This document shows positions 100-64,000 of a stretch of 64,000 bases of DNA, piece by piece. How positions within the stretch are numbered: the stretch's first letter is position 1; the number at the start of each line of letters is the position of its first letter. Source of the DNA: Chrysophaeum taylorii (Eukaryota; Sar; Pelagophyceae; Pelagomonadales; Pelagomonadaceae); NCBI GenBank assembly GCA_029834535.1, contig JAQMWT010000166.1, positions 1 through 64,000 on the forward strand. The letters run 5' to 3'. Made by a program: the position numbers and the translations under genes. The notes beneath the pieces are model-generated. The model did no database searches and was not told where the DNA came from. It saw only the letters and a list, made by a program, of their open reading frames with translations.

Positions 100-2508
100 C
101 TAACAAAAATTTAGAAATGAGACAAAATTTAAACAATGATACAAACAAAGCTGATCCCCATTCAGAGAGCACAGATACGTAACCACCGTCACATGCCCAG
201 GCTTCACCAGGTTGAAAATTTTTTTCGAATGATGGTTGTTTGATAAGGTGGTGTGGATGAGGGTGCTTTTATGAATCGTACAATCCACACAGAACTTATC
301 GTAGGGTACGTCAGATGGGTGATGTCCCGGACTGGCAATAACCTGAACAGCTTATAGCTTGAGAATCACTAGAATGGTGGATGTTGTAAAAATTGGTAGC
401 TCGTTGTTGTGCATCTCGAAATGCGAGGGTGCCCCTGCCATGGACTTTTTATCGAAGGGTGCATGCTTCTCATGGCTGTCTTGGCGTTATGAGAGGAATT
501 TGTCTTTCTTTAGTAGGCAGATGATATATCTGCGGATGAGGTGTTAGAGAAGAAGTCACGCTTGCACTGAATCGAGATGGAAGATGGTAAGTTCAGAAGA
601 AGCATATATCACAACATGAGAGTTTTTTATTGAGATGTAGAACATTGTAATGGAACTCTGGTGTAATATTAAGGATGTATCTGTTGGGAATATATTTGTG
701 AAGGTTGACCTATAGTTTTTGGTTAGAGAAGCATGATCAGGGTCAAACGATGGTGATAGCGTTAATTTACGCAAGTCATAGACAAGCTGACACAAATGTT
801 TATAAATTATGATATGTTCCAGCTGGAATAGCATTAGCGATTATATCACAGCATAGGTCCGGGACAAAGACAAAGAAAATTGATTTGGTGCGCTGTGAAG
901 TTATTGGCGCGTGCCAATTCGCGAGTTGAGTAGTGTCGAATGCAATCGAGTCGTGGATCGTACACGAGCATATTAGCAAATCCACGAATGGTAGAGTGAT
1001 AGTGATATAGAATGAACTTTGGCACCCATCTTCCTATCGCTTGATGTAATAAAGCCCAGATATCTGCTTTGGGACAAATGCATGTCACTTAAAGCAAACA
1101 TTTTATCGATAAATTCGAGACGATTTTCCTGAGGGTAGAAGACAAAAGAATCGTGAAATACAGGAGAAGTATAGGCACCAGTGCTTGTACTAGACGACGC
1201 GTGTCTTGATTTTCTTATTATTATGTATGCTTGGCAAAGCCAAAGAAAACCAGTAACAGGTTCGAGAGAAGCAGTCTTATCGATTCCGGCATCGTGTTAG
1301 GAAGGCATAGGTTTCGCCAAAAGCATTTATATGTGCCTGGTATTTAGAAGAGGAGTTAGAACTGTTATGTCTCCACCTGTGTGTCTTCCACCGGTGATGT
1401 AAATGATGGAGGAAGTAGAGGATTTATTTAAAATAACCTAGGAGATGGTTGGTTAGATTCGATAGTTGTAATACGAAAGGACACAGGTAATGTGATAGAT
1501 TTAGGGGATAAGCGTCCCATAATATTATAGAGGAGCACAAAAGCTTTGAGTTCAATAGAGATCTCATGCAAGCAAGTGGTTTTCTTGAATTAGTCAAGAA
1601 TCCCAGGCGAAAGTTAGAAATGCCCTCCATTTCATCTTGACTGGGATGTTCGACTGTTTTATTAGAGTGCAGACGAAGGAACAGCATAGTTAAGGTTTCA
1701 AGCTCAGTCACAGTTAAGCGCACGGATCCTGTACGACTAAAATGTTGTAGGTTTTAGGTGTGGACACGAATGGTATGTCGGGAAAGACCTGCGTCCAAGG
1801 TTCGTCGACTATTAACTTGCGACTGATGGAATTAGCGTGGTCTGCAATGTCCAGAAAGGAAGTGACTCGTTTGTTAGGCCATGAAAGCAGATCAAGATGG
1901 CCGGTGTTATATTTGCGTGCAACGAGGATCCATCTTTCTCTGGCTTGATAATCTCCACACAGATAGCATGGAAATCGGTCACATATATCCACCGTATAGT
2001 GCATCGTTGAGAAGATGAGATTAGCAACTCGTATATGGTCTTCATACGATGCGGAGTGTGGTGGTGTCATTTCCATGAAAAGAACAAGCGGCTTTAAAAG
2101 CTCAAGTACACTTAGAGCACTTGGAAACAAGGAATCATCCATATCACGCTCGAAGGTGGAAATGGATTTTCCATTGATTATGTTGCGATTTGTGCATGGT
2201 GATGTCAGTTCCACTATATCGGTGTAATATCGTGCACGTTCAGCGTCCGATGCTCGATGGATATCCGTCAGAAACTTAGGTAGGGATGGGAAAACTTCGA
2301 TGGAATTACCAAAACGTCTTCGTAGCATGTGCGTGATATTGTCGTCGCTCTCAACAAGAACTTTAACGTTGATGTTGATTTGCAAGTCATTAGAAGCGCA
2401 AGCCAAGAATGCAGGAGTGGACATCCCAGAGCAAAGTAGAGTTACAGTAGGTGTTTGTGAGCTAGGAGACGTAGTTACTGTGTGAAGCAAACGTGTGGTA
2501 GCCTTTCG
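100..2508 (-). pseudogene. Methyltransferase-like domain and pre-integrase region of copy A, broken
   Basis: The frame continues directly after the UGA. The stretch 2490-1714 carries motif I (LLCSGMSTPAFLA), the PC motif (SPCTNRN), the E of motif VI (FMEMTP) and the QxRxR motif (QARER). A frameshift near 1735 and more after 1424 scatter the rest. The IX/X block (STRELARANNF, then IIANAIPAGT) is still readable on two frames between 1000 and 800. From 290 to 100 lies CTIHK, the last part of a pre-integrase zinc finger, followed by the start of integrase in another frame. See copy B for the intact form. Confidence 0.78.
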
Positions 2509-5158: not shown

Positions 5159-6036
5159 GGTTGTGACCTATTAAGGAATAGGTTATAGGATTGATAGACA
5201 TATTCGACACATAAGAATGAAGGGTTTCTCGAGTGCGGGTTATATGTACAGTACGCTATTTTAAGCGTGGGCTTATTTACAAGACCAAACAAATCAACAT
5301 GCTATTTAAAAACAGGATGACTTGAGACTGAAGAATGGATTAATTCTCGGGCAGTCAGTCTTTTGTTGGGAATAGAAGGAAAAACCCGTACAAGTTTCCG
5401 CGGCTTGTATAGGAAAAATTTTAATTTTATTGGCTATGCGAGTGCATATGACCAGTGACCGACCCAACTCGGTCACAAACCAAATTAACTGGTGGACATA
5501 TACCGTCACATAACAAATATGTACAGTAGACCACCGCCAAACACATTGTCGCATTGTACTCGTGATCAGGCGCAAATTGATCACTCCATTTATACGTACA
5601 ACACAATTGGGCTGACACACCTACGCATCTGGGTCCATAACCTGGAGAGATTTGACCCTCACCGGGTACATGGTAGAGACTGCGTGCAGTCTTAGGCGTG
5701 TACAGACCATTCCGATTGTCACATGCTACTACACAAGGTAGGGATTTAAGCCCTAACTCCTTAAGGACATTAGGTCCCATAGAAGCGTTTACACTGACAA
5801 CGAGGAATGAAGCCTCTGTTAATTAAACAGAAAACCCCGTATCTGACGGTACGCACCTGGAGGCCAACTCCATGTTGGAAAAGAGCTTCAGACTGGGTTC
5901 TTCATAGTCATGAATAAGTAATTGCGGAAGGGTAAGGAAGGTAAGAGGGAAAGTCGTATTACGGAGAGAAAACCCTCTTGTAGAGATAGGCGTGAAATGT
6001 TCCAGTGTCGCACACATAATAGTGTAGCTCTCTGGA
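5159..6036 (-). repeat. LTR plus leader shared by copies A and B
   Basis: About 880 bp lying between the gag ATG of copy A and the truncated end of copy B. It matches 10488-11375, 58944-59827 (inverted) and part of 42867-43267. The upstream edge, on the minus strand, reads TCCAGAGAGCTACAC in every copy, so it does not show the usual TG start. The exact LTR/leader border and primer-binding site could not be fixed by eye. Because it is the 5' LTR of A and the 3' LTR of B, the two elements form a tandem that probably arose by unequal recombination. Confidence 0.75.
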
Positions 6037-7742
6037 GTTCCAGCCGGAATAGCATTAGCGATTATGTCACAGCATAGGTCCGGGGACAAAGACAAAAGAA
6101 AGTTGATTTGGTACGCTGTGAAATTATTGGCGCGTGCCAATTCACGAGTTGAGTAATGTCGAATGCGATCGAGTCGTGGATCGTACAAGATCATGTTAGC
6201 AAACCCACGAATAGTAGGAGTGGGAGTGTATATAGAATGAACTTTGGCACCCATCTTCCTATCACTTGATGTAATAAAGCCAAGGTATCGGCTTTGAGAC
6301 AAATGCATGTCACTTAGAGCAAAACTTTTATCGATAAATTCGAGACGATTTTCCTGAGGGTAGAAAACGAAAGAGTCGTGAAGCACAGGTGAAGTATATG
6401 AAACCAGTGTTTGTACTAGACGACGCGTGTCTTGAGTTTCACTATTATGATGGTATGCTTGACAAAGCCAAAGAAAACCGGTAACAGGATCGAGAGAAGC
6501 AGTCTTATTGATTCCGGTGTCATGTGTTAGGAAGGTATAGGTTTCACCGAATGCATTTATATGTGCCTGGTATTTAGAAGAGGAGTGAGAAACTGTGATG
6601 TCTCCACCTGTGTGTCTTCCACCGGTGATATAAATGATGGAGGAAATATAAGATTTATTTAAGAATAACCTGTGAGATGGTTGGTTAGATTCGATAGTTG
6701 TAATACGAAAGGACACAGGTAATGTGATGGATTTTGGGAATAAGCGTCCCATAATATTATAGAGGAGCACAAAAGCTTTGAGTTCAATAGGAGATCTCAT
6801 ACAAGCAAGGGGCTTTCTGGAATTAGTTAAGAATCCTAAGCGGAAGTTAGAAATGCCCTCCATGTCATCTTGACTTGGATGTTCGACTGTTTTGTTTGAG
6901 TGTAGACGAAGAAACAACATGGTTAAAGTTTCGAGCTCAGTAACTGTTAAGCGAACGGATCCTGTGCCACTGAAGCTATTATAAGTTTTGGGTTTAGACA
7001 CGAATGGCATGTCAGGAAAGACCTGCGTCCAAGGTTCGTCGACTATTGGCTTGCGACTGATGGAGTTAGCGTGATCTGCAATATCCAGGAAGGAAGTGAC
7101 TCGTTTGTTACGCCAGGAAAGTAAATCTAGATGGCCGGTGTTATATTTGCGTGCAACGAGGATCCATCTTTCTCTGGCTTGATAATCTACAAACAGGTAG
7201 CATGGAAATCGGCCACATATATCCACCGTATAGTGCATCGTAGAGAAGATGAGATTAGCAACTCGTATATGGTCTTCATACGATGCGGAGTGTGGTGGCG
7301 TCATTTCCATAAAAAGAACAAGCGGCTTTAAAAGCTCAAGTACACTTAGAGCACTTGGAAACAAGGAGTCGTCCATATCACGCTCGAAAGTTGAAATGGA
7401 TCGCCCGTTGATTATGTTGCGATTTGTGCATGGTGATGTCAATTCCACTATATTGGTGTAATATCGTGCACGTTCAGCGTCCGATGCTCGATGGATATCT
7501 GTCAGAAACTTAGGTAGGGATGGGAAAACTTCGATGGAATTACCAAAACGTCTTCGTAGCATGTGCGTGATATTGTCGTCGCTCTCAACAAGAACTTTAA
7601 CGTTGATGTTGATTTGCAAGTCATTAGAAGCGCAAGCCAAGAATGCAGGAGTGGACATCCCAGAGCAAAGTAGAGTTACAGTAGGTGTTCGTGGGCTAGG
7701 AGATGAAGTTACTGTATGAAGCAAACGTGTGGTAACCTTGCG
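5823..7742 (-). CDS. DNA cytosine-5 methyltransferase-like domain of copia copy B (uninterrupted)
   Basis: Numbering from the TTG at 7724, the ordered C5-methyltransferase motifs are: degenerate motif I (LLCSGMSTPAFLA, 18-30); an acidic motif II (VLVESDD, 44-50); motif IV with the catalytic-type Cys (SPCTN, C99); motif VI with Glu (FMEMTP, E140, where classical enzymes have ENV); motif VIII QARER (182-186, a perfect QxRxR); motif IX (STRELARANNF, 525-535); and motif X (IIANAIPAG, 554-562, compare GNAVPP). The spacer between VIII and IX, where target-recognition regions lie, is long (about 335 residues). No own start codon is obvious; expression presumably comes by UGA readthrough. The last 70 residues come from the LTR. 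Activity is unproven because motif I lacks the usual FxGxG. Confidence 0.72.
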   Translation of the reverse strand, partial: RKVTTRLLHTVTSSPSPRTPTVTLLCSGMSTPAFLACASNDLQININVKVLVESDDNITHMLRRRFGNSIEVFPSLPKFLTDIHRASDAERARYYTNIVELTSPCTNRNIINGRSISTFERDMDDSLFPSALSVLELLKPLVLFMEMTPPHSASYEDHIRVANLIFSTMHYTVDICGRFPCYLFVDYQARERWILVARKYNTGHLDLLSWRNKRVTSFLDIADHANSISRKPIVDEPWTQVFPDMPFVSKPKTYNSFSGTGSVRLTVTELETLTMLFLRLHSNKTVEHPSQDDMEGISNFRLGFLTNSRKPLACMRSPIELKAFVLLYNIMGRLFPKSITLPVSFRITTIESNQPSHRLFLNKSYISSIIYITGGRHTGGDITVSHSSSKYQAHINAFGETYTFLTHDTGINKTASLDPVTGFLWLCQAYHHNSETQDTRRLVQTLVSYTSPVLHDSFVFYPQENRLEFIDKSFALSDMHLSQSRYLGFITSSDRKMGAKVHSIYTPTPTIRGFANMILYDPRLDRIRHYSTRELARANNFTAYQINFLLSLSPDLCCDIIANAIPAGTPESYTIMCATLEHFTPISTRGFSLRNTTFPLTFLTLPQLLIHDYEEPSLKLFSNMELASRCVPSDTGFSV

Positions 7743-7745
7743 TCA
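7743..7745 (-). other. Conserved in-frame UGA between gag-protease and methyltransferase: candidate readthrough codon
   Basis: On the minus strand the context is CCC GTA TGA CGC AAG GTT. The frame continues without another stop into the methyltransferase. The same codon, followed by CG, lies at 2511-2509 (A), 50464-50462 (C), 54941-54939 (D) and 62555-62557 (E), always in frame with what follows. Other disabling changes differ between copies, so a shared stop looks functional. A C after UGA is a leaky context in many eukaryotes. Readthrough itself is an inference. Confidence 0.65.
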
Positions 7746-10487
7746 TACGGGAGGTGGGAAATGCTTGCGTATGTAAGGCAGCTGCGAATGCATTGACTCC
7801 AAGATGGTTTTGAGCCATGGTACGTAAATTACGCGTTCAAGAAGGTTGGAATATAGCTTAAGCATTTCGCGTTGTTCGTTAAAAGCACTTAGTCTGAACT
7901 GTAATGAGCGAAGTTCCATTTTCCGAACCTTTGCTTGTTGTAGCGAATAAATTGTGAGAGTAGGCAAAAAATTATTTAGTCTAAACAAAGTGATCTTGAC
8001 GTTGTCGTCAATTTTACTCTGGATAGACGATTGTCCTTTAAATTCAACCCCATAAAGATGTATACCAAGTTTATCTTCTCCCCATTGAGTCATGCTGGTG
8101 ATGTGCAGATCGGGATCGTTATGGTCGTTTTGCTTGGGTAAGAAAAGCGCAACGTCTAGCTTTACATATCCCACGTTCGAATGCTTTGGGAGAGCGGGAA
8201 TGACGGTTCTTATAATCATGGCATGTGTGATACTCTGAGTATCCGTAGCAGTCTGGATAGCGGGTGACAAGGACTCGGATAGTTTAACGATATGTATTGG
8301 ATCAGCGTAACGTTTAAAGTTAATTACATGTTGAGAGGCACACGTGTCAGCATATCCTGGCGTAGTCATTAGCGGCAAATTGTACTCATTGTACAGTTTA
8401 AGTATTGTTGCGTAACAGGCATGTGTTGAGCTTTGACCAGACACGTACTGTGTCATGAAACTTTGCGTTTGTTCGGAAGGCACAGCGATGAGTGTAAAAC
8501 CATTGTTTAATTTCGGTAACAACACAGGGGGATCTGTACCATCCTCATTATCTTTGTTGGGTTGATTGTTGGGGAGCTCAGAGTGCGAGGAAGTTTCCCG
8601 AGCTTGACGACGAACAATAGCATTCTGGGCTTTAGCGTTTATGTGCTGCAGTAGCGGCTGAGGAATGTTATCGATTTTATCATCTTTGATGGACAGAAAA
8701 GTATGAAGCATTTTCTCTGTTTCAGCAGTTCCCCTCTGCTCCGCATCACTGGGGGACGCTTCAGGAGCAGAAGTTTCAGCTTGATACTTTTCTTCTATAA
8801 CATGAGATTCTTTATCGGCTTCTAAGAGGTTCGATATAGTAATGGACATGGTATCAACTCGAGATAAGTATAGATGAACTTGAGTAGCTTCGTCAGGATC
8901 TAAAGATTGTGTCGAAGCTTGAGAGGCGGTTGTCCAAAGGGTACTAAGTAAGCTCTTCATTTCCTCCTGTACCATTTTAGAATCGGTGGAAGGATTGGGA
9001 TTCGCTTCCTGTAATTTACCAAACAGGTGGCGAAGACGATCAACTTGATAAGTAGCCCGGTCCACAAGAGACATGTTAGAGCGTGAGTTGCGGTTAGAGG
9101 AGTGTGAGTAGACAGGACGGTCGAAACTGGTGCCTTTAACGTTATAATTTGAAGGTGGACGATAGTAAGACGTATCACGAGGTGAAACTGTCGATGCTTT
9201 ATCTTTTGCATTACGAAGCTTACGAGCGTTAAAGCCAGACTGTCCAGCCACAGCAGCCAACAATGAGCTAGCATTGTTTAGAGAGTCGTGGGATTGATGA
9301 ATAGTATCCATCAATAAAACCTTAGGTGGTTTGGTAGCGGTAGTACCAGGGATGTATGGAATCCATGATGCGGGTTTATCCAAGCGTCGGCTAGATGAAA
9401 ATTTGTTTCATTATATATCTTTAACAAGAACACCAATAACGGACGAACGTCGTTAGGATCAACTAACTAGCTTTAAAACTCCAGGATCGTGAGTCGAGTT
9501 GTTCCCAGAGCGTGTCTCGTAGAGTTTACACCATTCTAATAAAGACTGAGAGTAGCGCTCGTGATCAGAGGGATTAGCATAGAGACGATGGATCTCCTCG
9601 TGAGCTTTGAGTGTGATCATGGAATCATTAAATTGGATTGATGCTTCGTCATAATTTAATTGCTTTGCCGGAGTTTGGAAAGCAAGGAGTTGTTCGACAA
9701 ATACATGAGCATACCAATTAACATTTAAGGACATTCTATTAAACTGAGATTTAAGCTCCGTGACATCTGTACATGACACTGTCTCATAGTAATGGTAAGC
9801 TAAAAGCATTACTGCACGTAGTTTATTAGGATGTGCAGTAAGTGCATAAATCTTCTTTAATTGAGGCCACATGGCGAGGGCAGGGCGTTCTTGCGATTCT
9901 AGATTGAAGAATGTGTACAAGAAACCGGCGTAAGTTTCGCAATGTTTGATCCAATCGGCATTAGAGAGACCTGTAAAGGATATGTTAGTTAGAGATGAAT
10001 CATACACAATTGATTTAGGGAATCGGGTATCTAATAAAGTGAGAACACGCTTAGCATCCTCATTTAATTCGGGACGAACAAGATTGTATGACTCTTGAAA
10101 GAACAGTCGTTCGAGATTATTACGAACATCGACTGACAGTTGATGTGAAGAATTAACGTGCCAAGTTTTAAGATGATCAGGCAAGGCATCTTCATTAGGT
10201 AATTGTAATTCGTTAGCCTTTTCAGCTTTCCACTGAGCGAAAATGATATCAACTTCGTGTTCGAAAAGTTGGTTATACTCCGGATCATTCCGGGTGTAAG
10301 CGTCATACGAATCAAAGCAGAACAACGCGTCCACGTATGGACTTGTCATATGTCTGCGAAGCATTTCAATTTGGAGGCTTACTTTGGTTGAGTTGTCTTG
10401 GAAGCGCAATCCAGTTGTGAGTTTATTAACAAGGAGTTGTTCCTGTTTGTAAATATCCGTGGTGGATATTGGTCTTGGTTTTGACAT
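7743..10487 (-). pseudogene. gag-pro: Gag-protease of copy B, nearly intact with frameshifts around 9470-9400
   Basis: ATG at 10487; open for 342 residues to 9459, where a 4-bp duplication (ACTA) shifts the frame. A small deletion near 9405 follows, and the frame is then open from 9383 to the family UGA at 7745-7743. The second part includes the retropepsin-like ADTCAS motif (near 8330) and the copia-type LHITSMTQWGEDKLGI segment. Gag is rich in charged residues and lacks any Cys/His knuckle. Its function as nucleocapsid is inferred from position. Confidence 0.82.
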
Positions 10488-11375
10488 AGTCGTGGCCTAT
10501 GGAAAATAGGTTATAGGGAAGGATAAAACAGGTTGACATGTTTGAATGAAGGGTTTCTAACATGTAGAGGAGTATGTACAGTTCGCTATTTTAAGCGTGG
10601 GCTTATTTACAAGACCAAACAAAGCAACATGCCATTTAAACATGATGATTTGAGACTGAAGAATGGATTAATTCTCGAGGAGTCAGTCTTTCGTTGGGGA
10701 ATGGAAGGAAAAGCCCGTACAAGTTTCCGCGGCTTGTGTAGGAAAAATTTTAATTTTATTGGCTATGCGAGTGCATATGACCAGTGGCCGACCCAACTCG
10801 GTCACAAACCAGATTAAATGGGGGTCAAATACCGTCACACAACAGATATGTACAGTAGACTACCGCCAAACACATTGTCGCGTTGTACTCGTAATCAGGC
10901 ATAAACTGATCACTCCATTATACGCACAACACAGTTGGGCTGACACACCTACGCATCTGGGCCCATAACCTGGAGAGAGTTGACCCTCGCCGGGTACATG
11001 GTAGAGACTGCGTGCAGTCTTAGGCGTGTACAGACCATTCCGCTTGTCACATGCTACTACACAAGGTAGGGATTTAGGCCCTAACTCCTTAAGGACATTA
11101 AGTCCCATAGAAGCGTTTACACTGACAACGAGGAACAAAGCCTCTCTTTATTAAACAGAAAACACCGTACCTGACGGTACGCACCTGGAGACCTACTCCA
11201 TGTTGGAAGAGAGCTTCAGACTGTTTTCTTCATAGTCATGAATAAGTAATTGCGGAAGGGGTAAGGAAGGAAAAAGGGAAAGCCGTATTACGGAGAGAAA
11301 ACCCTCTTGCGGAGATAGGTGTGAAAGGAGTGAGAAGTTCCAGCGTCGTACACACAATAGTGTAGCTCTCTGGAG
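10488..11375 (-). repeat. 5' LTR plus leader of copy B
   Basis: About 890 bp closely matching 5159-6036. The outer border (11375) has the same TCCAGAGAGC sequence on the minus strand and is followed immediately by gypsy sequence. The inner end holds a weak version of the short hairpin seen just upstream of gag in copies A and E. Confidence 0.78.
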
Positions 11376-13604: not shown

Positions 13605-13771
13605 CAGGCACGGAAGTTGGTTGTGGTTGTGTGGCGAGAGAACGGCCATCCTCGTCCAGTGACTCCATCAAGGGCACGGACGCGAGCGGCGAGCCAGGAT
13701 TCGAAGGCACGCCAGGTAGGCCTAAATTCTCCTTACGCCACAGGACCACAAACAACTTCCGTGCCTGGTCC
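13602..13771. repeat. Inverted repeat (about 36-bp arms) at the truncated gypsy end
   Basis: The arm at 13602-13637 (GACCAGGCACGGAAGTTG...) reappears inverted at 13736-13771 with about three mismatches, separated by some 98 bp. The left arm encodes the last gypsy RT residues before similarity stops; the right arm is the same RT segment flipped. This looks like a fold-back duplication made at a break or during aberrant reverse transcription. Confidence 0.8.
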
Positions 13772-31439: not shown

Positions 31440-32108
31440 TCCTAACTACTAATCGACAGATGTTTGTCTGTTTGTTTGTTTGTCTGTCTGTCTGTCTGTC
31501 TGTTTGTCCCTCGATTTAGGGTAAGGATCAGGTAGGCGCGAGAGTAAGGATCAGGTAGGCGCGAGAGCCAGACGATCACCAAGAGCCAGGTCCAGACGCC
31601 CCGCGAGGTCGGCGTCCTCTTTCCCAAGCCCGTCTTCTGCCACGTCCAGCTCTACGTGGCTCTCTGTCGATCGGCATCCCCAAGGATATACTCATCTGGG
31701 TCGACGACTCCACCCTACCCCACACGTGCTGCGCAATACCGATAAGCCCCCTCCCGGCGTCTACACGCGCACTGTAGGTGAACTTACTGGGACCACGTGT
31801 ACTTACTGGGGTTGGAGATTGGGACTAGGTGAGCTGAGTGACCAGGTGAACTTACTGGGACCAAGTGAACTTACTAGGGTTTTTAGAGTGAACGCAAAGG
31901 CTAGCGGCGTGTACGGATCAAAGCAGCTTAGATTGGCGGAGGTGAGAGGGACGGGCTCGAAGGAGAGTGGGGTGAGTGGATGTGAGCACGAGTGGGCTTA
32001 CGCCGAACTTACTGGGGTTAGAGATTGGGACTAGGTGAACTTACTGGGACCAGGTGAACTTACTGGGGTTAGAGATTGGGACTAGGTGAACTTACTGGCC
32101 TGCACTTG
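31440..32108 (+). mobile_element. Non-autonomous Helitron copy 1 with PIF1 remnant and terminal minisatellite
   Basis: Starts TCCTAACTACTAATCGAC at 31440 and ends GGCCTGCACTTG at 32108. It is flanked by A on the left and T on the right, as expected for Helitron insertion between A and T without target duplication. The 56943-57970 copy has identical termini. Inside are a TTTG/TCTG repeat (31463-31507), a 23-bp tandem duplication (31519-31565), a plus-strand PIF1 remnant (TITKSQVQTPREVGVLFPKP, VFCHVQLYVALCRSA; 31570-31700), and then the minisatellite. The 3' end is CTTG, not the canonical CTRR. Confidence 0.75.
31783..32100 (+). repeat. GGTGAACTTACTGG minisatellite
   Basis: About eight degenerate units of GGTGAACTTACTGG, spaced by GGACCA or GGGTTAGAGATTGGGACTA, with a 110-bp unique spacer containing GCTAGCGGCGTGTACGGATC. 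The same array, inverted, is at 56950-57250 inside the other Helitron copy. Confidence 0.85.
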
Positions 32109-32268
32109 TTATATATAATTGATTGATGAGTTCGCGCCTACCTGAGCCTAAACCCTGATTTGTGATTAGATTAGAGGTCTCGGAATGGCGCGAGAAATGC
32201 CACACTGCTTACGGGAGATGTGGCGGAAAGAGCACAAAGCAAAGTAAAGCAAAGTAAAGAAAAAAAGG

Positions 32269-42866: not shown

Positions 42867-43267
42867 CTGGAGAGATTTGACCCTCTCCGGGTACATGGTA
42901 GAGACTGCGTGCAGTCTTCGGCGTGTACAGACCATTCCGCTTGTCACATGCTACTACACAAGGTAGGGATTTAGGCCCTAACTCCTTAAAGACATAAGGT
43001 CCCATAGAAGCGCTTACACTGACAACGGGGAACGAAGTCTCTGTTAATTAAACAGAAAACCCCGTACGCGACGGTACGCACCTGGAGGCCTACCCCATGT
43101 TGGAAATGAGCTTCAGACTGGGTTCTTCATAGTCGTGAAAGAAAAGGGGCGGAAGGGTAAGGAAAAGGAAGAAAGAGGGAAAGCCGTATTACGGAGAGAA
43201 AACCCTCGTGTAGAGATAGGTGTGAAAATGTTCCAGTGTCGCACACATAATAGTGTAGCTCTTTGGA
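42867..43267 (-). repeat. Partial 3' LTR of copy C
   Basis: About 400 bp matching 5630-6036 and 10967-11375. It starts at the common TCCAAAGAGCTACAC edge (43267) and ends abruptly near 42867, in the middle of the LTR seen elsewhere. To the left is unrelated sequence. Confidence 0.8.
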
Positions 43268-44535: not shown

Positions 44536-46812
44536 TTAACCACCTTGTTGAGCTATGGGTTGTTGTTGTAAGCCGAGTAACGTGCGAAATCTGCTGAAGA
44601 GCGGAGCTCCAAAGGGTTTGGTAAATCCATCGGCGATATTATGGGTACCGGAAACATGATGTAGGCGGATTCGTTTTAACTGTACGTAGTCGCGTATACG
44701 GAACCAGCGTGTGCTGATAGCTTTAGCCTTAGTCGCGCTGTCGGGGTTATTTGATAGATGAATAGCAGAGGCCGAATCTCCAAGTATGGGACTGTTACGT
44801 ATGAACGACATGTCCGATGGGAGGGGATTGTCTTGAGCATCATAATCTAGTAGCAAATCTTTCCCTGAAGGTTGGCGAAGATAGAAGTGAGGGTTTATAA
44901 CGAATGCCATTTCCGTTAGCAATTTGCGTAACCAAATCACATCATCGGCACACATATTGAGGGCGATAAGTTCACTCTCATGCGTAGAAGTAGCTGTTAT
45001 AGGCTGTAGCTTAGACTTCCAAGTGATGAGAGAACCAAACAAAAAGATGGCGTAGCCTGTTGTATATTTGCGGTCTTGTTCATAAGAAGGTGCATTATCG
45101 GCATCAACGAATGCGACCAGTGGATCAAAATTACCTGAATTAACTTGTTCTTTAGTGTAGTCCAACATGGTGGCCATGTCAGTACGATTACCGATAAGAA
45201 GTCGAAGATGGTCCATTAGAGCGGAAGAACCAGAGTAGTACCAGAGGCGAAGATTACGATTTTCGGGCTTGCGCAAGTAGCGGAGCGTTCCTGTTAGTAC
45301 TTGAACATGCAGAAATGCTGGATTATGCATTCCTCGAGAGCAACGACTAAGGCTTTGGGATAAATCAGGGCGACAAGCTAATTGGACAAAAGTAAGTTTA
45401 CCAAGTAAGGTAGAGAAAGTCTGAAGAATAAACTTGTCCATATCAGAAGATGGCTCTCCAGTTTTATACGTGGTTGATGGTGACATCGGTGTAGAAGTGG
45501 GACGTAATTGCATTAAAATGGGGTACTCTTCGAACAATGCGTCAAGTTTAGCCTGACAATCCAGTGATATAGAGCCATCTGTTGTACGCGTTATGCGCAT
45601 GCCTAGGAGAGTATGGACTTCCTCGAAGGTGTCGACTGAGTATTCCTTTTTCAGGGCTTGCTGGAACTCACGACGTAGAGTTTCCGAAGTACAAGTAATG
45701 ACGACGTCGTCTACTGAGAGCGTGCAAATTAGAAATGTAGCGTCAGCTTGGACTTTAGCGTAAATGCATGTGTCTGTTCGAAATCGTGTGTAACCTAATG
45801 AATCAAAGAAGCTGTTTATGGTTTGATTCCAAAGGGCAGGGCTCTGACGCAATCCATAGAGAGATTTAAGTAGCTTTGGGAGACGGCGGCCTTGGTATTT
45901 AGTATCTTCGGGATCGAGAAGGTAAATGCCTTGTGGCAGTTTAACGTAGACATGCGAATCGATGGGAGCTTGAACAAAAGCGTTAGGGACGTCGACATGA
46001 TAGACGGGAAGTCGCAGATGAGCTGCTAGCGCCAAAACACAACGGATGCCGGTAAGCTGTGCCATAGGGCTGAATGTGTTGAAGAAATCGGTGCCCAGAG
46101 AGGCTAAGAATCCTCGTAGTACCAGGCGTGCTTTATGTTTAATGTACTGACCAGCAGCGTTGGTTTTTATACGTAGGACGAGACGGGTGTCAATAGGCTT
46201 TGAGTTGACCATTGGCAGCGCTAGTTTAAAGCAGCCAAACTTAACAATGTCAAAAATCTCTTTGGAGATGGCAGCAACATAAGCTTTGCGATCAGCGTCT
46301 GAGAGACCTTTGAGGCAGTTCAACTCATATTCATCAATTTTGATATCTTTGGCTTGAATCTTGTATTCGTCCGAACCAACCGTGCTGGGGTCATGAGTCG
46401 TCGTCAGATGAGTAGTTGCGTAAGAAGCGACATTATCGGGCAGATGAGCGTGATCGGGATCTTCGATGAGTTGAACGACTAGTAGAGGAGCATCACCAAG
46501 GTGGGCTTCAATGTAATGCGATTGCACGGTGATATAGTCTTCGATGGCGGAGAGATGAGGCTCGGAAGCACCATAAGAAGCGTCATTATGATCCAAAATG
46601 GAGTGGGGCGTGAACAAAGCATAAGCATATTGAGCGGGAGGAACTTGAAAGGCGTGAGCATGTTCAGAAACTAAATGAACGAGAGCTTGAGGAAGGTGAA
46701 AGTCGGCAAGGTTGACGTCGTCGTAGAAGTGGACATGAGGAGCATCAGGCGATGGGTGGCTATGGCTCCTATGACACATAACTGAAGAGGACTGTGAAAT
46801 CGCTTGGTGCAC
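44536..46812 (-). CDS. pol: Copia reverse transcriptase and RNase H of copy C
   Basis: 758 open residues. RT: KARLVLRGFLASLGTDFFN, FSPMAQLTGIRCVLALAAHL, YHVDVPNAFVQAPIDSHVYV, KLLKSLYGLRQSPALWNQ, and an active site SVDDVVI where YVDD is usual. The RNase H domain: AFVDADNAPSYEQDRKYTTG, KSKLQPITATSTHESELIAL, ILGDSASAIHLSNNPDSATK, IRLHHVSGTHNIADGFTKPF. These are Ty1/copia blocks in the right order. The N-terminal 100 residues are a Pro/His-rich linker. It joins integrase through a frameshift near 46850. The domain is otherwise intact, which suggests recent activity of the family. Confidence 0.92.
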   Translation of the reverse strand: MHQAISQSSSVMCHRSHSHPSPDAPHVHFYDDVNLADFHLPQALVHLVSEHAHAFQVPPAQYAYALFTPHSILDHNDASYGASEPHLSAIEDYITVQSHYIEAHLGDAPLLVVQLIEDPDHAHLPDNVASYATTHLTTTHDPSTVGSDEYKIQAKDIKIDEYELNCLKGLSDADRKAYVAAISKEIFDIVKFGCFKLALPMVNSKPIDTRLVLRIKTNAAGQYIKHKARLVLRGFLASLGTDFFNTFSPMAQLTGIRCVLALAAHLRLPVYHVDVPNAFVQAPIDSHVYVKLPQGIYLLDPEDTKYQGRRLPKLLKSLYGLRQSPALWNQTINSFFDSLGYTRFRTDTCIYAKVQADATFLICTLSVDDVVITCTSETLRREFQQALKKEYSVDTFEEVHTLLGMRITRTTDGSISLDCQAKLDALFEEYPILMQLRPTSTPMSPSTTYKTGEPSSDMDKFILQTFSTLLGKLTFVQLACRPDLSQSLSRCSRGMHNPAFLHVQVLTGTLRYLRKPENRNLRLWYYSGSSALMDHLRLLIGNRTDMATMLDYTKEQVNSGNFDPLVAFVDADNAPSYEQDRKYTTGYAIFLFGSLITWKSKLQPITATSTHESELIALNMCADDVIWLRKLLTEMAFVINPHFYLRQPSGKDLLLDYDAQDNPLPSDMSFIRNSPILGDSASAIHLSNNPDSATKAKAISTRWFRIRDYVQLKRIRLHHVSGTHNIADGFTKPFGAPLFSRFRTLLGLQQQPIAQQGG

Positions 46813-48150
46813 ATGGTGATGAAGGGATGGTGTAAATTCCCCTCTGGAGGTATAGCCGTCCAGTGGATGCCATGAGCGATATGAAGGGAGTGGAGGGTGG
46901 GGTCGCAGAATGTTATGTACTGCTTGGAGAGGTCATACTTGAAGTCGGCAAGCGCACCACCGGCTTGTTTATAAGCGGCAACAGTAGGCGAAGCAATACG
47001 AGTAAGAACATCCTTGAGATTGGTTTTGCGACGAGGCTGAGGGTGATGAGGACCACGGGTGAGACAGAGGACATCTTGGGAATAGAGAGACCGATAAGAT
47101 GGTAAAAGTGGGAGAGTGTCGGGAGACACTTCAGATGTAGGTGTGGTGGCGGAAGTAGCGGGTGCAGGAGCAGCTGGACTTGCGGGAGCGGGAGAGGGGG
47201 CGTGGAGATGAGAAGAAGGAGTCCCCCTCTCATGGTCAGGGTTGGTAGGCATAGCATTCCCCCTCTGCGTCGCATCATTGGGGGTGCTGTGGACAGAGAA
47301 GGGAATGTCGGGTGAAGGTGCGGGAGGTGGATGTTGTTCATAATCAGGAGGAGATTTAGAAATAAGATGGGGGAAAGTCAGTTTAGAGGAAACACGGACT
47401 TGACCGTTTTCAGGATTAAGGACAACATCGGCTAAATGATTAACATGGGGTGTTATTAAAGGGTTTATAACGTTAGCACCGCATAAGTAGATGTAGGGAC
47501 GGCATCGGGGTTCATATTTATGAAATTCGTTAGGTTCCAAATGCAAATAACAAACAGAACCAAAAGGTTTGAGGTAGTCTTGTTGGGGAACATTACATTG
47601 GTCTAACAAAACTTGTTGGGGGCTTAGGACTTTATTATAAATACGTTCGAGGGAAACGTTAGGGAGGAGATTATATGATTGGATAGCATGTATAACAGCC
47701 CACGGGTAGTGTGGTGCCGGATCTGTTAGGGGGTGACCTTTATAGGATACATTAAGCATATGCCTGAGTCGTGTAGACGCGGCAGTGGCTATGTGACCAA
47801 CAGCGGCTTCGACTTCATGATTAAAGACATGTAAGTAAGGGGGGGACGCGGACATATTAATACCATGTTCCACACGGAAGGGGGTTGTAACATGCTGAGA
47901 TAAGTAGGGTTTAAAGGAGTCACAATATATTTGTTTTAGTTGTACATGAACATAAGTAGAGCAAAAATTACGGACAAACTCAAGGGCGTTACAAAATTCG
48001 CTGGAGTTAGTGCTACGACAAAAGTACACTAACAGAAATTTAGAAATGAGACACTTGAAGACAATGATATGTCGAAAGGATCCCCATTCCGAGAGCACAG
48101 AGACGTAACCACCGTCACATGCCCAAGCTTCACCAGGTTGAAAAATTTTT
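46813..48150 (-). pseudogene. Copia integrase core of copy C
   Basis: Catalytic-type residues are present: the first Asp in PGEAWACDGGYVSVLSEWG (about 48130), the second in KQIYCDSFKPYLSQHV (about 47930), and Glu in PPYLHVFNHEVEAAV (about 47835). Further copia blocks: GINMSASPPY, SPQQVLLDQCNVPQQDYLKP, FGSVCYLHLEP. The frame is shifted relative to the pre-integrase part upstream (near 48190) and again before RT (near 46850), so it is broken in this copy. The C-terminal part is Pro/Ser/Ala-rich linker. Confidence 0.85.
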
Positions 48151-50461
48151 CGAATGATGGTTGCTTGATAAGGTGGTGTGGATGAGGAAAGCGTTTTTTA
48201 TGAATCGTACAATCCACACAGAACTTACGGTAGGGTACGTCAGATGGGTGGTGTCCAGGACTGGCAATAACCTGAACAGCTTTTATGGCTTGAGAATCAC
48301 TGGAATGGTGAATGTTGTGAAAATTGGTAGCTCGTTGTTGCGCATCTCGAAATGCAAGGGTGCCCCTGGCATGGACTTTCTTATCGAAGGGCGCATGCTT
48401 CTCATGGAGCTGTCTTGGCGTTATAAGGGGTATTTGTTTTTCTTTAGTAGGAGATGATATATCTGCGGATAAGATGTTAGAGAGGAAAGCATGAGCTACT
48501 GAATCAGTATGAAAAGAGGTAAGTTCGTGGTTTGAAGTGATAGTATCACAACATAAGAGTTTTTTATTGGAGATGTAGAACATAGTAATGGAACTCTGGT
48601 GTAATGTTAAAGATGTATCTGTTGGGAATATATTTGTGAAGAAGGTTGACCTATAGTTTTTGGTTAGAGGAGCGTGATCAGGGTCAAACGATGGTGATAG
48701 TGTTAATGTACGCAAGTCGTAAACAAGCTGACATAAGTGTTTATAAATTGTATGATATGTTCCAGCTGGAATAGCATTTGCGATGATATCACAGCATAGG
48801 TCCGGGGACAAAGACAAAAGAAAATTGATTTGGTGCGCTGTGAAATTATTGGCGCGTGCCAATTCGCGAGTTGAGTAGTGTCGCATGCGATCGAGTCGTG
48901 GGTCGTACACCAGCATATTTGCAAATCCACGAATGGTAGGAGTGGGAGTATATATTGAGTGAACTTTGGCACCCATCTTCCTATCGCTTGATGTTATAAA
49001 GCCCAAGTATCTGCTTTGGGACAAATGCATGTCACTTAAAGCAAATATTTTGTCGATAAATTCAAGACGATTTTCCTGAGGGTAGAAGACAAAAGAATCG
49101 TGAAATACAAGAGAAGTATATGAAACCAGTGCTTGTACTAGACGACGTGTGTCTTGATTTTCATTATGATGGTATGCTTGGCAAAGCCAAAGAAAACCGG
49201 TAACTGGTTCGAGAGAAGCAGTCTTATTGATTCCGGCATCGTGTGTTAAAAGGGCGTAGGTTTTGCCAAAAGCATTTATGTGTGCCTGGTATTTAGAAGA
49301 AGAGTTAGAAACTATTATGTCTCCGCCTGTGTGTCTTCCACCAGTGATGTGAATGATGGATGAAGTAGAGGATTTATTTAAGAATAACCTGTGAGATGGT
49401 TGGTTAGATTCGATAGTTGTAATACGAAAGGACACAGGTAATGTGATGGATTTAGGGAATAATCGTCCCATAATATTATAGAGAAGCACGAAAGCTTTGA
49501 GTTCAATAGGGGATCTCATGCAAGCTAGTGGTTTTCTTGAATTAGTCAAGAATCCCAGGCGAAAGTTAGAAATGCCCTCCATTTCATCTTAACTGGGATG
49601 TTCGACTGTGTTATTAGAGTGCAGACGAAGGAACAGCATAGTTATGGTTTCAAGCTCAGTCACAGTTAAGCGCACGGATCCTGTACAACTGAAAATATTG
49701 TAGGTTTTAGGTATGGACACGAATGGTATGTCAGGAAAGACCTGCGTCCAAGGTTCGTCGACTATTAACTTGCGACTGATAGAATTAGCGTGGTCTGCAA
49801 TGTCCAGGAAGGAAGTGACTCGTTTATTAGGCCATGAAAGCGGATCAAGAGGGCCGGTGTTTGATTTGCGTGCGACGAGGATCCATCTTTCTCTGGCTTG
49901 ATAATCTCCACATAAATAGCATGGAAATCGGTCACATATGTCCACCGTATAGTGCATCGTTGAGAAGATGAGATTGGCAACTCGTATATGATCTTCGTAT
50001 GATGCGGAGTGTGGTGGGGACATTTCCATGAAGAGAACGAGCGGCTTTAAAAGCTCAAGTACACTTAGAGCACTTGGGAACAAAGAATCATCCATATCGC
50101 GCTCGAAGGTGGAAATGGATCTCCCATTGATTATGTTGCGATTTGTGCATGGTGATGTCAATTCCACTATGTCAGTGTAATATCGTGCACGTTCAACGTC
50201 CGATACTCGATGGAGATATGTCAAAAACTTAGGTAAGGATGGGAAAACTTCGATGGAATTACCAAAACGTCTTCGTAGCATGTGCTTGATATTGTCGTCG
50301 CTCTCAACAAGAACTTTAACGTTGATGTTGATTTGCAAGTCATTAGAAGCGCAAGCCAAGAATGCAGGAGTGGACATCCCAGAACAAAGTATTGTTACTG
50401 TAGGTATTCGTGGGCTGGGAGATGAAATTACTGTGTGGAGCAAACGTGTTGTAACCTTGCG
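48151..50461 (-). pseudogene. Methyltransferase-like domain and pre-integrase region of copy C (one nonsense codon)
   Basis: Open from the UGA to a TAA at 49588-49586 (CAA to TAA compared with copy B), then open again to 48029. It retains SPCTNRN, FMEMSP, QARER, STRELARANNF and IIANAIPAGT, the same motif set as copy B. After motif X comes a linker and the pre-integrase finger (SPGHHPSDVPYRKFCVDC then TIHK, about 48250-48190), with an HH...CxxC arrangement. This shows where the methyltransferase lies: between protease and pre-integrase. Confidence 0.78.
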
Positions 50462-52364: not shown

Positions 52365-54938
52365 TTGTGAAAATTGGTAGCACGTCGCTGAGCATCTCGA
52401 AATGCGAGGGTGCCTCTGGCATGGACTTTTCTGTCGAAAGAAGCATGTTTCTCATGTAACTGTCTTGGAGTTATGAGAGGAATATGTTTCAATTTTGTAG
52501 GAGATGATGCATCTGCGGATGAGATGTTAGATAGGAAGACGTAACCCACTGAGTCGAGATGAAATAGTGGAAGTTCGTGGTTAGAGGCGATGTTATCACA
52601 ACATTGAAAGATTTTATTAGAGATGTATAACATTGTGATGGAACTCTGGTGTAGTATTAAAGATGTGTCGGTGGGAAATAAGTTTGTGAAAACGGTTGAC
52701 CTATAGTTTTTGGTTAGAGAAGCGTGATCAGGGTCAAAGGATGGTGATAATGTTAATTTACGCAAATCATAGACAATCTGACACAAATGTGTATAAATTA
52801 CGCGATAGGTTCCAGCCGGAATAGCATTAGCGATTATGTCACAGCATAGGTCCGGGGACAAAGACAGAAGAAAATTAATTTGGTACGCTGTGAAGTTATT
52901 GGCGCGTGCCAATTCGCGAGTTGAATAATGTCGAATGCGATAAAGCCGTTGATCGCAAAGGATCATGTTAGCAAATCCACGAATAGTGGGAGTTGGGGTG
53001 TATATAGAATGAACTTTGGCGCCCATCTTTCTATCGCTAGATGTGATGAAGCCAAGGTACCTGCTATGAGAAAGATGCATGTCACTTAAAGCAAAAATTT
53101 TATCGATGAACTCGAGATGATTTTTCTTTGGATAAAAGATGAAAGAACCGTGAAGCACGGGTGAGGTGTAGGAAACCAATGTTTGTACGAGACGACGGGT
53201 GTCTTGAGTTTCATTATGATGGTGATAAGCTTGGCATAACCAAAGAAAACCAGTAGCGGGATTGAGAGACGCAGTCTTATCAATTCCTGTATCATGTGTT
53301 TGTAAGATGTAGGTTTCCCCAAATGCATTTATGTGTGCCTGATATTTAGAAGAGGAGTTAGAAACTATGATGTCTCCACCTATGTGTCTTCCACCAGTGA
53401 TGTAAATAATGGAGGAAATAGAGAATTTATTTAAGAATAACCTGTGAGATGGTTGGTTAGATTCGATAGTTGCAACACGAAAGTACACAGGTAATGTGGT
53501 AGAATTTGGGGAAAAGCGTCCCATAATATTATAGAGGATAACAAAAGCCTTGAGTTCAATAGGAAAAGTCATACGTCATACATGAGAGGGGCTTTCTTGA
53601 ATTCGTTAAGAATCCTAGGCGAAAGTTAGAAATGCCCTCCATTTCAATCTTGACTTGGATGTTCGACTGTTTTATTTGAATGCAAACGGAGAAATTTTAC
53701 TTTACCCTGCGATCGCTAACCGTTGGTTGCGATGGAGGACGGCGCCTAACACGCCTGCTCCCTGCGGCGGCCCCGGCCGTCCCGGAGTGAGACGGTGCCT
53801 GCTCGCCTCCCGGGCTCGCCGGTTAGCACCTGGAAAGTCCGGGGATGGGGTTCGCTCGGTTGGGCAGAACGCGACGGACAGGTCGATTGTTCGTGGACCA
53901 ACACGTCCGCGGCCTGCGACGCTTTTGCAAGACCTCGCACAAGACCGCGCGCAGTGGCGGTCCACCATCAACAAGTCCGTCCTCGTCCCTCGCCTCTGGC
54001 CCCAACTGCGTGATTTTCCTCTGTGATTCCGTACCGGCTCCTGCCGGTCCGGCCTGGCTCCCATGCTCGGGAGAGGTCTGAAGTTAGTTAAGTTAGTGCA
54101 AACGGAGAAACAGCATGGTTAATGTCTCTAGCTCAGTTACCGTTAGGCGAACGGATCCTGTGCGACTGAAGCTGCTGTAAGTTTTGGGCATGGAAACGAA
54201 TGGTATATCCGAGAAGACCTGCGTCCAAGGTTCGTCGATAATTAACTTGCGACTGATGGAGTTAACGTGATCCGCAATGTCCAGGAAGGAAGTGACTCGC
54301 TTATTAGGCCAGGAGGGCAAATCTAAAGGACCGGTATTATATTTGCTAGCAACAAGGATCCATCTTTCTCTGGCTAGATAATCTCCACACAAGGAACATG
54401 GAAAGCGATCACTTATATCCACCGTATAATTCATTGTAGATAAGATAAGATTAGCAACTCGTATATGATCTTCATACGATGCAGAGTGTGGTGGCGTCAT
54501 CTCCATAAAAAGAATGAGGGGCTTTAAAAGTTCAAGTACACTTGGAGCACTTGGAAATAAGGAGTCGTCCATATCGCGCTCGAAAGTTGATATAGATCTC
54601 CCGTTGATTATGTTACGATTGGTGCATGGAGATGTCAATTCCACTATATCAGTATAATATCTTGCACGTTCAGTGTCCGATGCTCGATGTAGATATGTAA
54701 GGAACTTTGGTAGTGACGGGAAAACTTCGATGGAATTACCACACCGTCGTCGTAGCATATGCATAAGATTTTCGTCGCTCACAACAAGAACTTTAACGTT
54801 GATGTTGATTTGCAAGTCATTGGAAGCACAAGCCAAGAAGGCAGGAGTGGACATCCCGGAGCAAAGTAGAGTTACAGTAGGTGCTCGTGAACTAGAAGAT
54901 GTTGTTACCGTATGGAGCAGGCGTGTATTAACCTTGCG
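52364..54938 (-). pseudogene. Methyltransferase-like domain of copy D, interrupted by a LINE fragment
   Basis: The first part (54938-54097) has CSGMSTPAFLA, SPCTNRN and FMEMTP, but motif VIII reads YLARER, so its Gln is lost. The second part (53680-52364) contains the spacer, TIRGFANMILCD, STRELARANNF and IIANAIPAGT, then the linker leading to the pre-integrase region. Apart from the insertion and a small change near 53570 it is largely open, which fits a fairly recent loss. Confidence 0.75.
53695..54096 (+). mobile_element. 5'-truncated LINE-like insertion with 14-bp target duplication
   Basis: 402 bp of GC-rich DNA inserted in copy D, flanked by the direct repeat TGCAAACGGAGAAA (53681-53694 and 54097-54110). 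The plus strand has DLAQDRAQWRSTINKSVL before a stop (about 53931-54026), like the (A/V)xDRxxWR ending of many LINE proteins, and the sequence ends in GTTAGTTAAGTTAG. This fits target-primed insertion of a 3' fragment. It is not closely related to the LINE at 13.9 kb. A SINE is an alternative. Confidence 0.75.
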
Positions 54939-58708: not shown

Positions 58709-58943
58709 GATTGTGACCTATTAAAATACGTTATAGGAGTGATAATACAATTTGACATGTTCGAATGACGGGTTCTAACATGCGGAGGGATATGTACAGT
58801 TCGCTATTTTGAGCGTGAACTTATATACAAGACCAAACAAATCACTATGCCATCTAAGCATGATGCTTTGAGACTGAAGAATGGATTAGTTCTCGAGCAG
58901 TCAGTCTTTTTGTTGGGGAATAGAAGAAAAAAACCGTACAAGT
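58709..58943 (-). repeat. Leader and inner LTR of copy D, cut at the junction with copy E
   Basis: Matches 5159-5395 and 10488-10720. It ends at CCGTACAAGT (58943), where copy E's LTR edge (CCAGAGAGC) begins in the opposite direction. The rest of D's LTR would be expected beyond copy E if E inserted here. Confidence 0.75.
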
Positions 58944-62557: not shown

Positions 62558-64000
62558 CGCAAGGTTACCACACGATTGCTTAACACAGTAACTTCGTCTC
62601 CTAGCCCACGAACACCTACTGTAACTTTCCTTTGCTCTGGGATGTCCACTCCTGCATTCTTGGCTTGCGCTTCTAATGACTTGCAAATCAACATCAACGT
62701 TAAAGTTCTTGTTGAGAGCGACGACAATATCAAGCACATGCTACGAAGACGTTTTGGTAATTCCATCGAAGTTTTCCCATCCTTACCTAAGTTTTTGACA
62801 TATCTCCATCGAGCATCGGACGTTGAACGTGCACGATATTACACTGACATAGTGGAATTGACATCACCATGCACAAATCGCAACATAATCAATGGGAGAT
62901 CCATTTCCACCTTCGAGCGTGATATGGATGATTCCTTGTTTCCAAGTGCTCTAAGTGTACTTGAGCTTTTAAAGCCGCTCGTTCTTTTCATGGAAATGAC
63001 ACCACCACACTCCGCATCGTATGAAGATCATATACGAGTTGCTAATCTCATCTTCTCAACGATGCACTATACGGTGGATATATGTGACCGATTTCCATGC
63101 TATTTATGTGGAGATTATCAAGCCAGAGAAAGATGGATCCTCGTCGCACGCAAATATAACACCGGCCCTCTTGATCTGCTTTCATGGCCTAATAAACGAG
63201 TCACTTCTTTTCTGGATATTGCAGACCACGCTAACTCCATCAGCCGCAAGTTAATAGTCGACGAACCTTGGACGCAGGTCTTTCCTGACATACCATTTGT
63301 GTCCACACCTAAAACCTACAATATTTTTAGTCGCACTGGATCCGTGCGCTTAACTGTGACTGAGCTTGGAACCTTAACTATGCTGTTCCTTCGTCTGCAC
63401 TCTAATAAAACAGTCGAACATCCCAGTCAAGATGAAACGGAGGGCATTTCTAACTTTCGCCTGGGATTCTTGACTAATTCAAGAAAACCACTTGCTTGCA
63501 TGAGATCCCCTATTGAACTCAAAGCTTTCGTGCTCCTCTATAATATTATGGGACGCTTATTCCCTAAATCCATCACATTGCCTGTGTCCTTTCGTATTAC
63601 AACTATCGAATCTAACCAACCACCTCATAGGTTATTATAAAAAAAATCCTCTACTTCCTCCGTCATTTACATCACCGGTGGAAGACATACAGGCGGGGAC
63701 ATAACAATTTCTAACTCCTCTTCTAAATACCAGGCACATATAAATGCTTTTGGCGAAACCTATATCTTCCTATCACATGATGCCGGAATCGATAAGACTG
63801 CTTCTCTCGAACCTGTTACTGGTTTTCATTGGCTTTGCCAAGCATACCATAATAATAATGAAAATCAAGACACGCGTCGTTTAGTACAAGCACTGGTCAC
63901 CTATACTTCTCCTGTATTTCACGATTCTTTTGTCTTCTACCCTCAGGAAAATCGTCTCGAATTTATCGATAAAATGTTTGCTTCATGTGACATGCATCTG
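62558..64000 (+). pseudogene. Methyltransferase-like domain of copy E (cut by the window edge)
   Basis: Open in frame after the UGA to 63640. It retains CSGMSTPAFLA (62637 on), SPCTNRN (62866 on), FMEMTP and QARER (63119 on). A small change near 63630 creates a stop; the homologous reading continues in another frame to the edge (ITGGRHTGG and LEPVTGF regions). Motifs IX and X lie beyond the window. Confidence 0.75.

What the first reader, a model, noticed from the sequence alone, without database searches (positions are those of the whole stretch)
5823..7742. Copia retrotransposon family encodes a DNA cytosine-5 methyltransferase between protease and integrase
Seen: after the gag-protease frame all five copies carry a roughly 560-residue domain with, in order, CSGMST, VLVESDD, SPCTN, FMEMTP, QARER, STRELARANNF and IANAIPAG, at spacings fitting C5-methyltransferase motifs I, II, IV, VI, VIII, IX and X. 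Copy B keeps it open from end to end. Known: C5 enzymes use the Cys of PC, the Glu of ENV and the QxRxR Arg; as I recall, some algal LTR elements have captured such enzymes. Inference: the element methylates its own cDNA or host DNA, perhaps to hide from or exploit host silencing. The motif I and VI variants and the long spacer before motif IX suggest a divergent or distinct subfamily.
Basis: partly seen in the sequence, partly recalled or inferred. Interest (0 to 1): 0.95.

Follow-up and report, generated by a model that had tools for sequence, protein, structure and literature searches.

The report
Copia retrotransposon carrying a cytosine methyltransferase
A family of jumping genes in this eukaryote carries its own cytosine-methylation-type enzyme, placed just after a stop codon that looks made to be read through, so the element may mark its own DNA copies.

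Summary
Window 6036-7742 (-) encodes a divergent C5-cytosine methyltransferase (MTase) in a Copia element. The window protein alone has no significant profile or PDB match, but is 33% identical over 216 columns to a transcriptome protein, P0008, that passes the PF00145 cut-off; a model of P0008 retrieves C5-MTases in all 50 listed PDB rows. Catalytic PC, E and QxRxR are intact in 29 of 33 genomic copies; dN/dS is about 0.1, near that of protease and integrase. The reported ORF's last ~70 residues are LTR; copy B lacks IN and RT. At least three Copia families here carry an MTase before IN. New: in two families an in-frame UGA precedes the MTase, in F2 mostly UGA-CUA, a leaky context, so readthrough is likely. 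Against self-methylation: C>T is no commoner at CpG than elsewhere. MTases in LINE, DIRS and Gypsy elements are published (PMC5890265), so this is a new variant of a known kind. Methylation of its own cDNA is the best explanation, untested.

The parts
6036..7742 (-). C5-cytosine methyltransferase domain of copy B, about 569 codons (motif I 7667-7650, PC ends 7428, E146 7307-7305, QxRxR 7181-7167, motif IX about 6152-6120, motif X 6062-6039)
7743..7745 (-). In-frame UGA between Gag-Pro and MTase, followed by C; TGA in 32 of 33 F1 copies and at the same place in F2
7743..9407 (-). C-terminal Gag and protease ORF of copy B (DTCAS motif, by eye), same frame as the MTase
9459..10496 (-). Gag ORF of copy B; 38% identical to F2 gag
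10970..11374 (-). 5' LTR of copy B (about 405 bp)
10951..10970 (-). Primer binding site GGTTATGGGCCCAG..., next to the LTR; half-tRNA-iMet type (recalled)
5642..6036 (-). LTR directly joined to the end of the copy B MTase and shared with copy A
48731..50461 (-). MTase of copy C (one in-frame TAA)
44536..46932 (-). ORF of copy C with Copia RT (RVT_2, E 1.1e-42)
42867..43267 (-). 3' LTR of copy C
1717..2508 (-). N-terminal MTase part of copy A (rest broken)
52781..54938 (-). MTase of copy D, split by a ~400 bp insertion (53695-54094)
62558..64000 (+). MTase of copy E, cut by the window end

Best explanation
A long-established lineage of Copia retrotransposons encodes a C5-cytosine methyltransferase as the first domain of its Pol part. 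Ribosomes mostly stop at a UGA after Gag-Pro; a minority read through and make Gag-Pro-MTase-IN-RT-RNase H, so a little MTase is packaged with RT and integrase into the particle. There it most likely methylates cytosines of the new cDNA before or at integration, so the copy arrives already marked. Shown: the domain, its homology, selection on it, its place, and the conserved UGA. Inferred: readthrough, packaging, activity, cDNA as substrate, and benefit.
Against: No activity data. The window protein has no Pfam or NCBIfam match at E <= 1 and no PDB match better than E .082 by itself, and its own model was poor (mean pLDDT 37.9) and resembled dehydrogenase Rossmann folds. Among F1 copies C>T is no commoner at CpG (.0182) than at CpT (.0211) or CpA (.0176); G>A is a little commoner at CpG (.0138) than at ApG (.0114), TpG (.0096) and GpG (.0062); both strands together give .0159 at CpG against .0146 elsewhere (from the counts). 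Motif I and VI depart from consensus. Readthrough was not measured, and a reassigned UGA in this host was not excluded.
Confidence: 0.55

Rival explanations
1. The enzyme acts on RNA: the genomic RNA or the half-tRNA primer in the particle, like DNMT2, not on DNA.
For: The PBS fits an internal tRNA-iMet primer (recalled). Almost no CpG-specific mutation excess. In PMC5890265 the tested SymbioLINE DNMT did not methylate DNA in yeast and an RNA role was suggested (passages).
Against: The listed fold rows mix DNA enzymes (HhaI, HaeIII, DNMT1) with DNMT2, so no preference is shown. The long region between motifs VIII and IX is as constrained as the core, as a target-recognition part would be.
Confidence: 0.12
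2. The enzyme works in trans on the host genome or on invading DNA viruses, for defence or to reshape host methylation.
For: Many copies: 74, 79 and 107 match rows for F1, F3 and F2; the defence idea is proposed in PMC6338049 (passages).
Against: A place just after a conserved in-frame stop ties it to Pol and so probably to the particle. It is constrained together with protease and integrase.
Confidence: 0.12
3. The domain has lost catalysis and serves as a DNA-binding, structural or targeting part.
For: Divergent motifs I and VI; no direct profile match.
Against: C105 in 33 of 33, E146 in 32 of 33, R190 and R192 in 33 of 33 copies; P104, C105, E146, Q188, R190 and R192 also shared by P0007, P0008 and an F2 row.
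Confidence: 0.12
4. Not a methyltransferase: chance motifs on another Rossmann fold, such as a dehydrogenase.
For: The first, low-confidence model resembled SDR dehydrogenases.
Against: Homology chain to PF00145 and C5-MTase fold of the relative.
Confidence: 0.02

Closest known systems
KnitGypsy-Dnmt3 (Klebsormidium nitens), PMC5890265
   Same: LTR element with a C5-MTase in the Pol polyprotein, several copies, purifying selection
   Different: Gypsy, not Copia; MTase classed as Dnmt3; no readthrough stop mentioned in the parts read
SymbioDIRS-Dnmt3 and SymbioLINE-Dnmt (Symbiodinium), PMC5890265
   Same: C5-MTases fixed in retrotransposon coding regions in high copy number; SymbioLINE enzymes are likewise outside the named DNMT families
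   Different: DIRS and LINE elements; that paper says Symbiodinium Copia lacks any DNMT
Sentence in PMC12344493 (2025), section 5: DNMT3 'embedded within ... LTR Copia and DIRS'
   Same: Names Copia
   Different: Cites the 2018 paper, which describes Gypsy; section 5 gives no Copia element of this kind
DIRS elements with Dam-like adenine methylase (mentioned in PMC5890265 and PMC6338049)
   Same: Retroelement with its own DNA methylase
   Different: Structurally unrelated adenine enzyme and another element class

Membership tests
C5-cytosine methyltransferase (PF00145) | Motifs I, IV (PC), VI (E), VIII (QxRxR), IX, X in order | tested here: met
   motif I (CSGMST) and VI (EMT for ENV) are variants; motif consensus recalled
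C5-cytosine methyltransferase (PF00145) | Catalytic residues conserved among copies | tested here: met
   29 of 33 F1 copies keep all six of P, C, E, Q, R, R
C5-cytosine methyltransferase (PF00145) | Direct match of the window protein to the Pfam profile | tested here: not met
   none at E <= 1; relative P0008 41.8 bits, P0007 20.2 bits against cut-off 22
C5-cytosine methyltransferase (PF00145) | C5-MTase fold | tested here: inconclusive
   relative P0008: yes; window domain itself: model too poor
C5-cytosine methyltransferase (PF00145) | 5-methylcytosine made | not testable with these tools
   no assay
Ty1/Copia LTR retrotransposon | RVT_2 reverse transcriptase | tested here: met
   copy C, E 1.1e-42; F2 and F3
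Ty1/Copia LTR retrotransposon | Integrase upstream of RT | tested here: met
   L039: rve 784-866 (17.2 bits, below cut-off 32.6), SH3_retrovirus 968-1007 (20.4, cut-off 27), RVT_2 1431-1529 in one ORF; L040 alike for rve and RVT_2. The rve matches are weak.
Ty1/Copia LTR retrotransposon | LTRs and adjoining primer site | tested here: met
Ty1/Copia LTR retrotransposon | Copy B itself carries IN and RT | tested here: not met
   MTase joins an LTR directly
DNMT-bearing retrotransposons of PMC5890265 | DNMT inside the element's coding region | tested here: met
DNMT-bearing retrotransposons of PMC5890265 | Belongs to the LINE, DIRS or Gypsy families described there | tested here: not met
   RVT_2, IN before RT
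DNMT3 subfamily | Clusters with eukaryotic DNMT3 in a tree | not tested
   no reference DNMT set was gathered
Stop-readthrough gag-pol expression | Conserved in-frame stop in a leaky context between gag(-pro) and pol | tested here: met
   (leakiness of UGA CUA is from human cells)
Stop-readthrough gag-pol expression | Measured readthrough | not testable with these tools
   no assay

The most novel reading that the evidence does not exclude
The methyltransferase is not a recent passenger but a fixed replication enzyme of an old Copia lineage: dosed by UGA readthrough, packaged beside RT and integrase, and acting on the nascent cDNA, the RNA-DNA hybrid or the tRNA primer during reverse transcription. 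It would have been kept at the same place through the split of three families whose RTs are as little as 32% identical.
Probability: 0.3. Interest if true: 0.82.

Novelty: new variant of a known kind. Interest (0 to 1): 0.62.

Why it matters
Retroelements are usually the targets of cytosine methylation. A second LTR superfamily, after Gypsy, that keeps its own C5-MTase under constraint close to that on its protease and integrase suggests the enzyme helps replication itself. The conserved UGA in front of it gives a testable account of dose and packaging; I saw none such in the parts of the LINE, DIRS and Gypsy report that I read.

Tried and rejected
Window protein against Pfam and NCBIfam: nothing at E <= 1; against the PDB by sequence: 19 rows up to E 10, best .082, a ribosomal protein; profile of six rows against the PDB: two leptin rows, E .055 and .28; P0008 against the PDB: none at E <= .1. 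First AlphaFold2 model: poor, SDR-like, not used as evidence. Profile comparison with the host's own Dnmt2-like L001 and with L002: E .17 and .058, not significant, though L002 lines up at motifs I, II, IV and VI. F3 vs F1/F2 MTase: not found by BLAST; hhalign E 1.8e-4, probability only 48.9%, against E .035-.87 for three reversed decoys and .42-.71 for three unrelated proteins, so a common origin of the F1/F2 and F3 MTases is likely but not proved. Relatives in IMG/VR viral contigs: none confirmed. Protein search with the F3 query: none at E <= .001 among the 8000 candidates scored. A first dN/dS run (32 copies) used a reference with broken flanks and gave .315 and .452 outside the MTase; it was replaced. 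RNA structure after the UGA: single folds of -20.0 and -17.8 kcal/mol without controls, and no clear dip in third-position variation, so no 3' signal is claimed. Host identity: not obtained.

Print: in the listings of searches (several cut to 8-20 of up to 275 papers) and in the passages opened I saw no description of a Copia family with a C5-MTase apart from the sentence in PMC12344493. Opened: PMC5890265 (parts 1-2 of 7 and passages), PMC12344493 (section 5 and passages), and passages only of PMC9998398, PMC6338049, PMC12477816, PMC9033089, PMC10449503, PMC3145265 and PMC4359377. Iyer 2011, reference 3 of PMC5890265 for rare DNMT-RT links, was not read.

Full report
What is there. The window is contig C166:1-64000 of a 70.8 Mb genome in 697 contigs, eukaryotic by its content. 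A GC-rich middle (about 14-42 kb) holds host-type genes: of nine ORFs scanned, four gave DnaJ, CRAL_TRIO, ABC1-kinase and IF-2B domains, one was a Gypsy pol fragment and four gave nothing. It is flanked by AT-richer retroelement clusters. Five related element copies lie at about 1-6 kb (A), 6-11.4 kb (B), 42.9-52.4 kb (C) and 52.4-58.9 kb (D), all on the minus strand, and from 58.9 kb (E) on the plus strand. LTRs of about 400 bp lie at 10970-11374, 5642-6036, 42867-43267 and 58942-59344. A GGTTATGGGCCC primer site adjoins three of these four; from memory this is the half-tRNA-iMet type of Drosophila copia. Copy C carries a Copia RT (RVT_2, E 1.1e-42).

Correction of the finding. The reported ORF 5823-7742 is the MTase (6036-7742) plus about 70 residues read from an LTR. 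So copy B is LTR-gag-pro-MTase-LTR, without integrase and RT. L010, on another contig, has the MTase end joined to LTR-PBS-gag at nearly the same place. Many other copies read on past the MTase; in L021 one ORF of at least 1079 residues runs into a weak integrase match (rve 17.4 bits, SH3_retrovirus 21.4 bits, both below cut-off).

How many and how old. In the host genome P0001 gives 74 match rows, 48 without a stop inside; only 69 of 2411 candidates were scored, so this is a lower bound, and a few copies give several rows. This is family F1. A second family, F2, found as a piece upstream of F1 in L021, gives 107 rows. A third, F3, gives 79 rows. PF00145 itself gives 57 rows in the genome; of the eight I looked at, two are host-type genes (L001, L002) and six are F3. 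In the F3 element L040 the ORF after the MTase's N-terminal part carries RVT_2 (133.3 bits) and a weak rve match; motif IX- and X-like stretches are visible there by eye only. F1 and F2 are 38% identical in gag, 29% in pro, 47% in MTase, 54% in IN and 52% in RT. F1 and F3 are 32% in RT and 25% in IN; their MTases are not linked by BLAST but by hhalign (E 1.8e-4, probability 48.9%; decoys and unrelated proteins .035 or worse). So the MTase has travelled with the rest of Pol at least since F1 and F2 parted, and possibly since F3. Whether Copia families without an MTase exist in this genome was not tested: the 150 RVT_2 rows seen (of 1670 candidates) were not sorted by family.

Selection. Over 33 F1 copies (30 loci plus window copies A, C and D), pooled dN/dS is .175 in gag/pro 1-350.083 in protease.111.102 and .082 in the three parts of the MTase.189 in the linker and first part of IN and .080 in the IN core; pairs with too few sites were dropped, leaving 324 to 528 of 528 pairs (Nei-Gojobori counts, so values mix selection on the active lineage with neutral decay). 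Cys105, Arg190 and Arg192 are kept in 33 of 33 copies, Glu146 in 32, Gln188 in 31; 29 of 33 keep all six catalytic positions. The region between motifs VIII and IX (about 340 residues; 216-499 measured) is as constrained as the core, as expected of a large target-recognition part.

The stop codon. In F1 the MTase frame directly follows the Gag-Pro frame, separated by one in-frame stop: TGA in 32 of 33 copies, TAA in one, and C as the next base in 33 of 33 (rows). In F2, of 22 junctions examined, 19 aligned and 18 have TGA at the same place, 13 of them followed by CTA; L041, which did not align, also reads TGA CTA. The one exception that aligned, L053, lacks the stop. UGA CUA is the consensus for high basal readthrough in human cells (PMC4359377, passages). 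A stop kept in place between families whose proteins are 29-54% identical is best explained by readthrough that makes MTase-IN-RT-RH as the minor product. A downstream RNA signal was not shown. In F3 copies the protease and MTase can lie in one ORF without a stop (L006, L007). UGA reassignment in the host was not tested.

Does it methylate its own DNA? Published precedent: DIRS-encoded DNMT3s of Symbiodinium methylate CG de novo in yeast, while the SymbioLINE enzyme tested did not (PMC5890265, passages). Here I could test only a footprint. CpG o/e is .92-1.03 in F1, F2 and F3 stretches.71 in one LTR, 1.29 in 26 kb of host sequence and 1.22 in a 1.7 kb MTase-free Gypsy fragment; TpG is in excess in the elements (1.16-1.27 against .84 and 1.11). 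That points the right way, but the one MTase-free control is short. Among F1 copies C>T is .0182 at CpG.0211 at CpT.0176 at CpA and .0141 at CpC; G>A is .0138 at CpG.0114 at ApG.0096 at TpG and .0062 at GpG. Both strands together this is .0159 at CpG and .0146 elsewhere: hardly any CpG-specific excess. So either methylation is not CpG-directed, leaves little mutation, the copies are young, or DNA is not the substrate.

Comparison and novelty. C5-MTases in LINE, DIRS and Gypsy elements are published (PMC5890265); that paper states that Symbiodinium Copia lacks any DNMT domain. PMC12344493 (2025, section 5 read) mentions DNMT3 in 'LTR Copia and DIRS', citing the 2018 work, which describes Gypsy. 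Apart from that sentence, the listings of searches and the passages opened showed no Copia family with a C5-MTase. I therefore rate it a new variant of a known kind: a new element superfamily, a divergent enzyme, a fixed place between PR and IN in several families, and a conserved readthrough-type stop before it. DNMT subfamily placement and host name are open.

Noticed in passing
window 7743-7745 (-); L039, L042-L061: Conserved in-frame UGA (F1: UGA-C; F2 mostly UGA-CUA) between Gag-Pro and MTase-Pol in two families, a likely readthrough site.
   Followed up: yes
window 5642-6060 and L010:3150-3760: In two loci the MTase end is joined directly to LTR-PBS-gag at nearly the same position, as if a tandem or deletion form lacking IN and RT had spread.
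   Followed up: partly
L021:1-1500: A piece of the F2 MTase runs in frame into the end of the F1 Gag-Pro ORF, just upstream of an F1 MTase: a recombinant element.
   Followed up: partly
G000:C4, C120, C514 and others (L003-L008, L040): A third Copia family (F3) whose MTase matches PF00145 directly (36-46 bits) and whose protease and MTase share an ORF in L006 and L007.
   Followed up: partly
window 12068-13732 (-): Gypsy-type pol fragment (RNase H and Integrase_H2C2) beside the Copia cluster.
   Followed up: no
window 31567-32109 and 56942-57474: A shared repeat of about 500 bp, part of the ~1 kb insertion in copy D.
   Followed up: no
L002:1006-3537 (+): Host gene with a PF00145 domain in a 2086-residue open frame, perhaps DNMT5-like (label from memory).
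   Followed up: no
window elements, L039-L041: Element sense strands are G-poor (G .17-.20, C .25-.33) and 43-52% GC, beside a host stretch of 61.5% GC.
   Followed up: partly
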